In this document: positions 37,454 through 54,454 of the stretch, piece by piece
How positions within the stretch are numbered: the stretch's first letter is position 1
How the letters are laid out: each line of letters starts with the position of its first letter
Assembly: GCF_000411555.1 (NCBI RefSeq)
Contig: NZ_KE150487.1
Location: 124,001 to 188,000, forward strand
Direction of reading: 5' to 3'
Source: Atopobium sp. oral taxon 199 str. F0494
GTDB lineage: Bacteria > Actinomycetota > Coriobacteriia > Coriobacteriales > Atopobiaceae
Length of the DNA: 64,000 nucleotides
Program-made: the position numbers and the translations under genes
The notes under the pieces: generated by a model
Database searches by the model: none
Told to the model about the DNA's origin: nothing
Seen by the model: the letters and a program-made list of their open reading frames with translations, nothing else

Positions 37454-38740
37454 TTATGCCCCCAAAGTATCAATCGGAATAACATATATCCCATCCGAGC
37501 GCCGTCTACGCGCCATCGTCCCCTTACCGAGCAACACAGCCATAAAACTAGGCTTAGGATTTCTTGCTGCAGGATTAGCAGCCACCTTTCTCGCAACTCT
37601 TATGAGATTCGCAGCCGCATCTTCCACTTTAGATTCCCCCATCTTGATTTCAATGGCTGCCCATCGACCATCCATCAATTCAATAATGGCGTCAACCTCA
37701 AGCCCGTCGGCGTCCGCATAATATCGTAAAGATCCCCCATACGATTTAGGCAAAGCAGAAACGTAAACGGACAAATCATGAATGCAGAGTGACTCAATCA
37801 ATAAACCAAAAAGCTGTCCGTCTTTAAGTAAGCGTGAAGAGTCGACACCTAATAAACTGGCCACGAGAGACGTATCACAGAAATATCGTTTTGGTTTCGT
37901 GCGCAGCCTTGACTTTGACCTGATTGGCGCATCCCAGCCCGAGAGCTCCTCAATAAAATAGTTGCACCTAAACTCTTCAAGGTATGAGGATATGGTCCCA
38001 TCCACCGGAGCTATATTGTCAAAGGCAGCAATATCATCTCTCACGGTGCCCAGCGTTGCACTCGTTGCTACATTTCGTGCAAGAGATGCAGCTATGCGGC
38101 GGGACAGAAGTGGACTTTTTCCCGCGCGAGGCATGCTTACATCAAAAAGTGCATTAAGATACTCGTCGGCAACGGCCCTTGGATCCGTCAATTTTTTTGT
38201 TTGAAGAGCCGGCCACCCACCGCGGCATACAATATTGGCTAAATCGGCAAGATCAATATGAGATTGTGCCGGCTGGAAGGAATCTTCAAAGAGTCCCAAA
38301 AGGGATACTGCTCCCGTAGAATCTCCAGTCTCTGCAAGACTCATAGTATGCATACGCAACCGTGCAATGCGTCCTGCTCCACTATGTCTTTTTTCATCCT
38401 CGGGAGAAGTAGAGGAGCCTGTCAAAATAAACTGGCCCGGCTTATTTGCACTATCATCAATTCTGTGACGTACAATATTCCATATAGCAGGTATATCTTG
38501 CCATTCGTCAATAACATGAGGGGTATCACCAACAAGAGCAAGTTGTGGATCATCCATATAGATCTGTTCGGATTCATCCACACGTGTCACACTCTCGCCA
38601 AATGACTGTGCCGTCCAGGATTTCCCCGACCAGCGAGGACCACAAAGTTCTATACCACCAAAGGTATCCAGAAGGACCTGCACCTGTGAATCGATAATAC
38701 GAGGAATGTACGTTTTCGGCTTAAACTTTGAATATCTCAT
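37454..38740 (-). CDS. AAA ATPase with DUF4143 domain (1)
   Basis: 428 aa. N-terminal AAA domain: Walker A LCGPRWSGKSW (about 32-42), Walker B-like HVIDEWQDIP (about 75) and sensor FILTGSSTS (about 104). The C-terminal DUF4143 region carries a nuclease-like core (GLEVDAIIELMDGRWAAIEIK, where the spaced D...E.K pattern resembles PD-(D/E)xK). These common ATPases have no settled function. A four-unit repeat array lies 57-147 nt upstream of its start. Monocistronic. Confidence 0.85.
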   Translation of the reverse strand: MRYSKFKPKTYIPRIIDSQVQVLLDTFGGIELCGPRWSGKSWTAQSFGESVTRVDESEQIYMDDPQLALVGDTPHVIDEWQDIPAIWNIVRHRIDDSANKPGQFILTGSSTSPEDEKRHSGAGRIARLRMHTMSLAETGDSTGAVSLLGLFEDSFQPAQSHIDLADLANIVCRGGWPALQTKKLTDPRAVADEYLNALFDVSMPRAGKSPLLSRRIAASLARNVATSATLGTVRDDIAAFDNIAPVDGTISSYLEEFRCNYFIEELSGWDAPIRSKSRLRTKPKRYFCDTSLVASLLGVDSSRLLKDGQLFGLLIESLCIHDLSVYVSALPKSYGGSLRYYADADGLEVDAIIELMDGRWAAIEIKMGESKVEDAAANLIRVARKVAANPAARNPKPSFMAVLLGKGTMARRRRSDGIYVIPIDTLGA

Positions 38741-38796: not shown

Positions 38797-38887
38797 CATT
38801 GATGATTTTCGAGGGATTCCATTTATGATTTTCGAGCAAACTCAACTATGTTTTTCGAGCCATTACATTGATGATTTTCGAGGGATT
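38797..38887. repeat. Four TGATTTTCGAG boxes at exact 23-bp spacing
   Basis: TGATTTTCGAG at 38803, 38826 and 38872 and TGTTTTTCGAG at 38849: start-to-start distances are 23, 23 and 23. The outer copies share the longer context CATTGATGATTTTCGAGG. The array sits upstream of the DUF4143 ATPase start (38740) and downstream of the AraC gene stop (38903). The regular two-turn spacing suggests cooperative protein binding on one face of the helix. Confidence 0.85.
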
Positions 38888-51923: not shown

Positions 51924-52337
51924 ATGAGCTGGCAAAACTACTTACGTGCTTATGCGGTATCACTACATGACACGCTTCTACAGCATCCAAATGCCATTAT
52001 GCTAGTGCTCACTCACCCGATTTCTACTCCTGGGCAGCTCTCACTTTTTGCTAAGATGCTTGCAAATCTCTCGAAAACCGGCTTTTCTGCACCTTTGGAT
52101 ATACTCGGGATTGCAACCGCCGTTACGGTATATACCACGGGTTTTTCTGCTTCGGAAGCTGTGCCTCCTGTGGGAAGTACCTCCAACGAAGATGCTCCTA
52201 GTCTCTCTGAAGCAATTAAGTCTCTGCCGGCTGATGAGCTTGATTCGCTCAATATGCTCATTAGAGACATAATGGAAGGTAAGTGGGGCTTCAGCACCCA
52301 GTTTGAAAGAGGACTTGACGCCATTCTTAAAGGGTGA
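51924..52337 (+). pseudogene. TetR-family C-terminal fragment lacking the DNA-binding domain
   Basis: 137 codons resemble the ligand-binding domain of TetR/AcrR proteins (WQNYLRAYAVSLHDTLLQHP, LPADELDSLNML). No helix-turn-helix is encoded upstream; the preceding bases belong to the antitoxin promoter region. There is no good ribosome site before ATG 51924. Best read as a truncated gene. Confidence 0.6.
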
Positions 52338-52447
52338 GAATAGCGGAAGGCTTTGTAATACCAACGCCTCATCAGGGGATACTTTAGTTTTTCTTACATA
52401 GACTCTCATACCAAACATAGACTTAAGGTTAATACGTTTGCTAGACA

Positions 52448-53014
52448 TCATTTAGCATTACGAATTAGATCTTCTTTAGCTTCATCACCTGAGTCATAAA
52501 ATCTTGCCCATTTTGTTGAAAATGTATCTATAAAACCGATGCTTTTAACTTTATATTTATCGTGAGTAGGTTGAATACAAATCGGACTATAGTCCTGTTC
52601 CGTTTCAACTCGCTTCAAATAAGTAAAGTATTTCTTTTCTTTGCAATACGATGTTACAAAATTGCCTACCGGGATTATCGGATATGTATTTATCGTAGGA
52701 GCAGTTAAATCCACCCCATTCCAAATTACCTTGATTTTTACATTTCGAATCGGTCCGGAAGAATTATTACAGAGGTATAGACTGTAAAATTCCGCTCCTC
52801 CTTCTTTTTTTACTTCAATCCAAGCATTAACTCCATAAGCTAAGCTTTTTTGATTTCGTTTTTCTTCTTCAATTCGAAACTCTCTATCTTTCTTCTGTTC
52901 ACTTTTAAATTGCTCAATACTTATTAAAATTGCTGATAATGCTATTATGGCTGCTAAAATTTCTGCTACCGCTCCGATTAATCCTGAGTATGTATTCAAT
53001 ACTTCTAACATCAT
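52448..53014 (-). CDS. Hypothetical single-pass membrane protein
   Basis: 188 aa, unrecognised. One N-terminal membrane helix (about 8-32), a charged coiled stretch (QFKSEQKKDREFRIEEEKR), then a beta-rich cytosolic domain (about 60-188). Two adjacent ATGs with GGAG upstream. The composition is clearly AT-richer than most of the window, suggesting recent acquisition. It lies 17 nt downstream of the second DUF4143 ATPase on the same strand and may form a pair with it. Confidence 0.65.
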   Translation of the reverse strand: MMLEVLNTYSGLIGAVAEILAAIIALSAILISIEQFKSEQKKDREFRIEEEKRNQKSLAYGVNAWIEVKKEGGAEFYSLYLCNNSSGPIRNVKIKVIWNGVDLTAPTINTYPIIPVGNFVTSYCKEKKYFTYLKRVETEQDYSPICIQPTHDKYKVKSIGFIDTFSTKWARFYDSGDEAKEDLIRNAK

Positions 53015-53031
53015 TTCTCCAATCTATCTCC

Positions 53032-54336
53032 TTAAACCCACTGTTCATATTGGGCAATTGCCCACAGCGGTATATTGACCAACCAACCGTCATCTCGGTA
53101 TGAAGACAAAGAAGTTCGAATTGCATGAGATAAGTCAAATTTCTCAACCGCAATTTTTAAACTCTTTGATTGAAGGTTTTCCCCAGCTTTAACCTCAATG
53201 GGATACGGTTGACTCTTATACTCCACAGCAAAATCAGTTTCAGCTCTTCCAGATTCAGAAGACCAATATACAGGGGCTTTATTTTGACTCAATAACGATT
53301 GAGCAACATATTGCTCAGTTATAGCTCCTTTGAATTCTGTAAATAGACGCATTGAATCTGAAAGTATAATCGCAGGATCCAGATTAGAAAGAGCTCCCAA
53401 AAGACCAACATCAAGACAGAAAATCTTAAATGCTTGCGCATCCTCATAGCTCGCAAACGGAAATCTTAATGCGGCAACACGAGAAACTTTATAGAGTATC
53501 CCGTAATCAATCAGCCATTGAATGCTTTCCTCAAAGTCTCTTGCCCGTCCACCCTTTCGGACAACCCCATAAATGAATTTTTTATTTTCTTTCGCCAATT
53601 GACTTGGCAGTGAATGCCAAACGAGTCTCATACGTTCTTGAATTCTTGCTGGCGCATATTTTCCAAAATCACTTTCATAATCATTGATGATTTGCGACTG
53701 AATACGTCTACATGCCGAAAGATTTTGATGTAAAACATACGAATTAACCACTCCCGGCATTCCGCCAACAATCAAGTATTCTTTAAGCTTTGCTTGAAGA
53801 ATATCCTCTACAGCCTTAAGGTTACTTTTATTCGCCTGAAGAAGTTCATCTGCCAGCGGATCACCTGAAGTTGCGCGAACAAACTCAACAAAACTCATTG
53901 GATAGAGTATGAGCTGGTCAACCTTTCCTACAGGAAATGACACTCCTTCTCCGCGCATAGAGATGCCCATATAAGATCCTGCAGCAATAATATGATACTC
54001 GCTGGCTTGCTCGCAAAAATACTTAAGTGAGACAAGACCTTGTGGAGCTTCCTGAATCTCATCAAAAAGTATTAATGTATTAGACGGATCAATAACATTG
54101 CCAGTACGCAGCTCGATCTGTCGAACTATTTTGTGTGGATCCAAATCTTGTTCAAATAAAGAGCAGGCTGATGGCTCCATTAAAAAGTCGATACGAACAA
54201 CGTTTTTATATTCTTTCCTAGCAAACTCATTCATTAACCAAGTCTTACCAGTTTGTCTGGCACCTTTCAGAATAAGTGGCTTTCTTTCTATACTATTTTT
54301 CCACGCAATGAGGTCTTCCATAAGAGATCTATACAT
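53032..54336 (-). CDS. AAA ATPase with DUF4143 domain (2)
   Basis: 434 aa. Walker A LKGARQTGKTW (about 25), Walker B LILFDEIQEAP (about 83), sensor IIAAGSYMG (about 115). The C-terminal DUF4143 part has the nuclease-like pattern (AETDFAVEYKSQPYPIEVKAG near 385-405, quoted in its core DFAVEYK and PIEVKAG). ATG 54336 is preceded by AGAGG at 8 nt. Extending to 54498 would translate an upstream DNA repeat into a repeated peptide, which argues for the shorter form. AT-rich like its neighbour. Confidence 0.85.
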   Translation of the reverse strand: MYRSLMEDLIAWKNSIERKPLILKGARQTGKTWLMNEFARKEYKNVVRIDFLMEPSACSLFEQDLDPHKIVRQIELRTGNVIDPSNTLILFDEIQEAPQGLVSLKYFCEQASEYHIIAAGSYMGISMRGEGVSFPVGKVDQLILYPMSFVEFVRATSGDPLADELLQANKSNLKAVEDILQAKLKEYLIVGGMPGVVNSYVLHQNLSACRRIQSQIINDYESDFGKYAPARIQERMRLVWHSLPSQLAKENKKFIYGVVRKGGRARDFEESIQWLIDYGILYKVSRVAALRFPFASYEDAQAFKIFCLDVGLLGALSNLDPAIILSDSMRLFTEFKGAITEQYVAQSLLSQNKAPVYWSSESGRAETDFAVEYKSQPYPIEVKAGENLQSKSLKIAVEKFDLSHAIRTSLSSYRDDGWLVNIPLWAIAQYEQWV

Positions 54337-54397
54337 CGCCATCACCTCTTTGTTGAACAAGCTTTCAGGCCAGTATAGCGCTTTTAGTAATAACTTA

Positions 54398-54454
54398 CAC
54401 ATTTCTCGTACGACTTTTGTGAAAATCTTGCACATTTCTCGTACGACTTTTGTG
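54398..54454. repeat. Two 24-bp near-palindromic repeats upstream of ATPase (2)
   Basis: CACATTTCTCGTACGACTTT followed by TGTG occurs identically at 54398-54421 and 54431-54454, 33 bp apart. Each copy has CACA/TGTG ends and a central CGTACG palindrome. The pair lies 62-118 nt before the start of the DUF4143 ATPase, the same relative place as the 23-bp array of the other such ATPase. Confidence 0.85.

What the first reader, a model, noticed from the sequence alone, without database searches (positions are those of the whole stretch)
54398..54454. Second DUF4143 ATPase also has upstream repeats: duplicated 24-bp palindrome-like box
Two identical 24-bp copies, 33 bp apart, with CACA/TGTG ends and a CGTACG centre lie 62-118 nt before this ATPase, the same relative position as in the first. 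Each ATPase may have its own cognate box, as in a self/non-self or copy-control system. The repeat also misleads gene callers into a false N-terminal extension with a duplicated peptide.
Basis: partly seen in the sequence, partly recalled or inferred. Interest (0 to 1): 0.62.

Follow-up and report, generated by a model that had tools for sequence, protein, structure and literature searches.

The report
Self-operator boxes before DUF4143 ATPases
Just upstream of a solitary ATPase-nuclease gene of unknown function lie two identical DNA boxes; relatives of this gene in three bacterial phyla carry similarly spaced boxes built into their promoters, each in its own version, so the gene most likely switches itself on and off by binding its own private boxes.

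Summary
The two 24-bp boxes are real (54398-54421, 54431-54454; spacing 33) and occur nowhere else in the genome. They belong to a widespread pattern. Upstream of homologous AAA_14-DUF4143 ATPases in Actinomycetota, Firmicutes and Bacteroidota lie 2-4 direct copies of a 24-bp box spaced 32-33 bp. In 38 of 53 Firmicutes loci the last box contains the -35 element, with TATAAT 35-36 nt from its start. The window's other ATPase belongs to a subfamily with 23-bp-period repeats (24/28 loci); a third subfamily has one palindrome next to the -35. Box sequence follows the protein subfamily: pairs 10-20% diverged in protein but with dissimilar flanks share a box in 88% of cases, against about 5% beyond 50% divergence. 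Paralogues in one genome have unlike boxes. No neighbouring gene is conserved, so the likely reader is the ATPase; the protein stretch that best tracks box sequence is its winged helix. PADLOC files the gene as PDC-S01, an abundant untested phage-defence candidate. Best explanation: a cognate, autoregulatory operator array. 'Each ATPase has its own box' is supported; self/non-self or copy control is not shown. Binding and repression are inferred, not measured.

The parts
54431..54454 (-). Box 1 (distal), gene-sense CACAAAAGTCGTACGAGAAATGTG
   Evidence: matches the family-wide motif
54398..54421 (-). Box 2 (proximal), identical; its right end overlaps the presumed -35
54395..54400 (-). weak -35-like hexamer GTGTAA at 17-bp spacing from the -10, overlapping the end of box 2
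   Evidence: read from sequence; in Firmicutes homologues the -35 sits inside the last box
54372..54377 (-). -10-like TATACT
   Evidence: read from sequence, by analogy with homologues aligned on the last box
54343..54349 (-). Shine-Dalgarno AGAGGTG
   Evidence: read from sequence
53032..54336 (-). AAA_14-DUF4143 ATPase, 434 aa: AAA+ module, winged helix, PD-(D/E)XK nuclease-like domain; PADLOC PDC-S01
   Evidence: Pfam, PADLOC E=1e-166, alignment, AlphaFold2 model pLDDT 88, fold match
53416..53649 (-). winged-helix region, residues about 230-307; residues 237-270 track box sequence best in the pooled set
53188..53241 (-). PD-(D/E)XK core residues E366, D368, E381, K383, invariant in 51 homologues
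38797..38882 (-). upstream array of the first ATPase: four CTCGAAAAtCATnAaTG copies (one degenerate), 23-bp period
37454..38740 (-). first AAA_14-DUF4143 ATPase (other PDC-S01 subfamily, PDLC04790)

Best explanation
The boxes are a cognate, autoregulatory operator array. The ATPase, acting as an oligomer through its own winged helix, binds two to four direct copies of a half-palindromic box phased about three helical turns apart (32-33 bp) over its promoter, and so represses its own transcription. ATP/ADP state or a signal such as infection would change occupancy and release expression. Each subfamily reads its own box, which insulates the many paralogues of one genome from each other. Shown by computation: the arrays, the fixed spacing, the promoter embedding, co-inheritance with the protein, uniqueness in the own genome, and absence of any other conserved gene. 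Inferred: direct binding by the ATPase, repression as the sign of regulation, the triggering signal, and a defence role.
For: Tandem repeats in 45/79 broad homologue loci, all with period 32 or 33, against 2/76 with unrelated periods in far-upstream controls; 49/86 in the Coriobacteriia set, 46 of them at period 32-33, against 2/84 far upstream. One PWM finds 203 boxes in 84 of 86 loci with 107 of 119 spacings at 32-33. In Firmicutes the -35 is inside the last box and TATAAT lies 35-36 nt from the box start in 38 of 53 loci. Boxes are about 100-250 times denser, in gene-sense orientation, within 300 nt upstream than elsewhere in the loci. No neighbouring protein is shared by more than 8 of 79 loci. 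Box similarity follows protein similarity where flanks are dissimilar (Mantel). The protein stretch tracking boxes best is residues 237-270, the winged helix. The box is unique in the own genome and, among 140 genomes of the family, occurs only in the same species and in one congener at the same locus.
Against: No binding or expression data. The winged-helix peak is clear in the pooled set but, in the two subsets taken alone, other stretches (e.g. 105, 361-405) score as high or higher. About 40% of loci show no significant tandem repeat by the self-comparison test, although the PWM finds boxes in most of them. In some Coriobacteriia subfamilies the boxes lie at other places relative to the -10. 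The -35 of the window gene itself is weak.
Confidence: 0.7

Rival explanations
1. Self/non-self or copy-control marks: the ATPase-nuclease recognises the boxes on incoming DNA (another copy of its own element, or a virus) and the copies at its own promoter are a decoy or identity tag.
For: Intact PD-(D/E)XK core, STAND-like fold shared with NLRs and Avs5, PDC-S01 classification, private box per ATPase.
Against: The box pattern has no exact match in viral contigs; boxes overlap the promoter core rather than lying anywhere; boxes of other genes of the family lie at their promoters only.
Confidence: 0.12
2. Initiator-and-iteron type element: the AAA+ winged-helix protein binds direct repeats next to its own gene to start replication, as archaeal Orc1/Cdc6 does at origin recognition boxes.
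For: Foldseek ranks DNA-bound ORC/Cdc6 structures high; repeats lie next to the gene.
Against: Many paralogues per chromosome; no conserved replication gene nearby; promoter core embedded in the boxes; presence/absence of the gene at one locus within the genus.
Confidence: 0.05
3. The boxes are an operator, but for a separate, unlinked host regulator.
For: No direct binding data for the ATPase.
Against: Boxes differ between paralogues of one genome and follow the ATPase subfamily across genomes; one host regulator could not read them all.
Confidence: 0.1
4. Terminal repeats or an insertion site of a mobile element carrying the ATPase.
For: Patchy distribution; congener G024 keeps the boxes but lacks ATPase and the next ORF.
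Against: Boxes are not found at the 3' side of the gene (1 hit in 23 kb); no transposase-like neighbour is conserved.
Confidence: 0.03

Closest known systems
PDC-S01 phage-defence candidate (PADLOC); AAA_14-DUF4143 / COG1373 ATPases
   Same: The protein is a clear member (E=1e-166); same AAA+ plus PD-(D/E)XK make-up as described in PMC12988326.
   Different: No report of cognate upstream box arrays was found; searches for DUF4143, COG1373 and PDC-S01 in the open-access library returned nothing on regulation.
RptR repressor of restriction-modification islands (PMC12255303)
   Same: Three direct repeats with a palindromic core in a defence-island promoter, bound by a repressor.
   Different: RptR is a separate small regulator with one conserved site; here no separate regulator exists and every subfamily has its own box.
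C (controller) proteins of restriction-modification systems (own knowledge)
   Same: Autoregulation through tandem operators overlapping the promoter, specific to each system.
   Different: Small HTH proteins beside the nuclease; here the presumed regulator is the 434-aa ATPase-nuclease itself.
Archaeal Orc1/Cdc6 with origin recognition boxes (own knowledge; fold match)
   Same: AAA+ plus winged helix reading repeats next to its own gene.
   Different: No origin features tested or seen; promoter embedding; nuclease domain.
Archaeal AAA+ ATPases PABY2304 (2QEN) and SSO1545 (2FNA); STAND NTPases
   Same: Best fold matches over residues 1-318 (Z 16.3 and 15.4), followed by NLR and CED-4 cores.
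   Different: No sensor repeat domain; C-terminal nuclease-like domain; about 13-15% identity.

Membership tests
AAA_14-DUF4143 ATPase / PDC-S01 | Pfam AAA_14 and DUF4143 above cut-off; PDC-S01 profile | tested here: met
AAA_14-DUF4143 ATPase / PDC-S01 | intact Walker A/B and PD-(D/E)XK residues | tested here: met
   G25-T32 (bar position 29), D92-E93, E366, D368, E381, K383 invariant in 51 sequences
AAA_14-DUF4143 ATPase / PDC-S01 | anti-phage activity | not testable with these tools
   unvalidated also in the literature (PMC12988326)
Autoregulatory operator | repeated sites overlapping the gene's own promoter | tested here: met
Autoregulatory operator | site sequence co-varies with the encoded protein | tested here: met
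   same-genome paralogues differ
Autoregulatory operator | co-variation located in the DNA-binding domain | tested here: inconclusive
   pooled peak at residues 237-270, not unique in subsets
Autoregulatory operator | direct binding and repression | not testable with these tools
   needs gel shift, footprint and reporter
STAND NTPase | NBD-helical-winged-helix core of the NLR/CED-4 type | tested here: met
   Z 13.9 to RPP1, 13.8 to CED-4 over residues 1-319/337
STAND NTPase | C-terminal sensor repeats | tested here: inconclusive
   C-terminus is DUF4143; fold search barely tests that part
Mobile element with terminal repeats | boxes at both ends of the unit | tested here: not met
Structured RNA / attenuator | Rfam match | tested here: not met
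   no match up to E=1; in the Firmicutes loci boxes lie upstream of the -10

The most novel reading that the evidence does not exclude
The boxes are more than operators: the STAND-like ATPase-nuclease assembles along its phased private array as an armed sensor, and loss or titration of that assembly, or meeting its box on foreign DNA, triggers nuclease activity, so that the array is a self-identity and arming device of a very abundant defence gene.
Probability: 0.12. Interest if true: 0.88.

Novelty: new variant of a known kind. Interest (0 to 1): 0.64.

Why it matters
PDC-S01 is reported as the fourth most common predicted defence system in prokaryotes (PMC12988326) and its function is untested. 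A cognate, promoter-embedded box array for each family member gives a direct experimental handle: the DNA ligand can be read from the genome for thousands of ATPases, their DNA specificity can be matched to a winged helix, and 'what releases the ATPase from its box' becomes a testable question about what the system senses.

Tried and rejected
A chance repeat was rejected. RNA element: no Rfam match. Boxes in viruses: pattern scan of viral contigs gave no exact match. A conserved neighbouring regulator: none shared by more than 8 of 79 loci, those being mostly ABC-transporter-like. Mobile-element ends: rejected. Sequence search of solved structures gave nothing. NCBIfam and PHROGs gave nothing. 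In own-genome paralogue L008 the palindrome score was not above shuffles. Archaeal homologues were not sampled, as no archaeal handle was at hand.

Full report
Observation. Neither the window nor the 1.67-Mb genome holds another copy, even with three mismatches. The gene downstream on the minus strand is an AAA_14-DUF4143 ATPase. Fifty-one homologues place its start at ATG 54336 (MYR), so the boxes are 62-118 nt upstream.

The pattern across relatives. Eighty homologous loci from Actinomycetota, Firmicutes, Bacteroidota and others were fetched, then further Coriobacteriia loci. In a blind test for tandem similarity at periods 28-38 upstream of the gene, 47 of 80 loci were significant, 46 of them with period 32 or 33. 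With a wider period range the result held, and far-upstream control stretches of the same loci were at background (2 of 76 and 2 of 84). An iterative motif search seeded with the window box found 203 boxes in 84 of 86 loci, with 107 of 119 spacings at 32 or 33 bp. The gene-sense consensus is roughly CACA-(A/T)4-TCGTTGnAAAA(A/T)TGTG, the right half being better conserved than the left. The motif is about 100-250 times denser, in gene-sense orientation, in the 300 nt upstream of the ATPase than elsewhere in the loci, and is not found at the 3' side.

Promoter architecture. When 56 Firmicutes loci are aligned on the last box, a -35 hexamer (TTGTAA, TTGACT, TTGATT) falls inside the box, and a -10 hexamer matching TATAAT in at least 5 of 6 positions lies 35 nt (34 loci) or 36 nt (4 loci) after the box start, out of 53 with such a hexamer. 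The promoter core is therefore built into the operator-like array. In the window, TATACT at 54377-54372 puts the weak -35 position on the right end of box 2 (read).

Other subfamilies. The first ATPase of the window (37454-38740) has four CTCGAAAATCATnAATG-type copies spaced 23 bp at 38797-38882. The clean copies occur only there in the genome; one further two-mismatch hit lies inside the second ATPase gene. Its own subfamily in other genera shows repeats in 24 of 28 loci, 20 with period 23, one 22 and three 44 (2 x 22), against 2 of 27 in controls. Box sequences differ between members. A third subfamily (own-genome locus L003) has mostly a single palindrome, AATTTGGGAATATAATTCCCAAATT, abutting TTGACA; 12 of 26 members exceed all 20 shuffles for palindromes, against 2 of 26 in controls.

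Co-variation. For pairs of ATPases whose far-upstream flanks are dissimilar, the best 20-nt match between box regions is at least 16/20 in 88% of pairs at 10-20% protein divergence, 67% at 20-30%, 50% at 30-40%, and about 5% beyond 50%; the control region stays flat. A Mantel test agrees (Spearman 0.45 for the box region against 0.18 for the far control; none of 199 permutations reached it; note that the weaker control correlation also exceeded its permutations). Forty pairs of paralogues in the same genome have box regions no more alike than background. The box thus follows the protein subfamily, not the genome.

Who reads the box. No flanking protein is shared by more than 8 of 79 loci, so only the ATPase is constantly linked to the boxes. 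A sliding-window partial Mantel test points to residues 237-270 (partial correlation about -0.37 to -0.40 by k-mers, -0.30 by best match; permutation null -0.08, sd 0.018). In the AlphaFold2 model (pLDDT 88) this is the winged helix between the AAA+ module and the nuclease-like domain, including a poorly ordered, basic and conserved stretch at 250-262. This localisation is suggestive only: within the two subsets other stretches, such as 361-405, score as well.

The protein. Walker motifs and the PD-(D/E)XK residues E366, D368, E381 and K383 are invariant among 51 homologues. The model matches archaeal AAA+ ATPases 2QEN and 2FNA best (Z 16.3, 15.4), then NLR, CED-4 and Avs5 cores; Foldseek also lists DNA-bound ORC/Cdc6. 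PADLOC identifies it, and the first ATPase, as PDC-S01. A recent survey calls PDC-S01 the fourth most common defence system in prokaryotes, not yet validated, with an ATPase domain fused to a PD-(D/E)XK superfamily member (PMC12988326). Searches for DUF4143, COG1373 and PDC-S01 in the open-access library found nothing on upstream boxes; subscription papers and preprints are not covered.

A natural comparison. In congener G024 the same locus, 92% identical in the flank, lacks the ATPase and the next ORF but keeps both boxes, one intact and one altered. The simplest reading is deletion of the gene leaving orphan boxes; insertion next to pre-existing boxes is not excluded. In G023 the interval between the same two neighbours holds a flavodoxin-like gene instead; in G026 only the methyltransferase side was seen and the gene next to it is a different one.

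Interpretation. The best-supported account is a private autoregulatory operator array. Shown here: arrays, phasing, promoter embedding, co-inheritance, uniqueness and absence of another linked gene. Inferred: binding by the ATPase, repression, and the releasing signal. The nearest functional analogue is RptR, which represses a defence island through three direct repeats (PMC12255303), but here regulator and effector would be one protein.

Noticed in passing
G000:C1:387828-388511 (L005): N-terminally truncated paralogue of the window ATPase (45% identical over residues 201-428) with a different, apparently decayed box (CAAAAAGTCGTTTGATATTTTG) just upstream of the remaining open frame.
   Followed up: partly
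L119 (G024:C7), versus window 52345-54393: Presence/absence polymorphism: congener lacks ATPase and 188-aa ORF but keeps orphan boxes, the second altered to CACAAAAGTCGTACGACTTATGTG.
   Followed up: yes
window 52448-53014 (-): 188-aa ORF directly downstream of the ATPase, one predicted membrane segment by eye, no Pfam/NCBIfam/PADLOC/PHROG match; absent together with the ATPase in G024.
   Followed up: no
window 51924-52337 (+): 137-aa C-terminal part of a TetR-like regulator that is 246 aa in congener G024: probably truncated in the window.
   Followed up: no
window 37454-38740 (-): First ATPase is absent (no match at 1e-40) from the same-species genome G025 but 98% identical in congener G026, which suggests horizontal transfer with its array.
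   Followed up: partly
L102-L118, L131-L147: In some Coriobacteriia subfamilies the array ends in a long inverted pair (e.g. TTACGGCCTTATTTTCGCCA...GCGAAAATAAGGCCGTA) just before the Shine-Dalgarno, a different geometry from the direct repeats.
   Followed up: no
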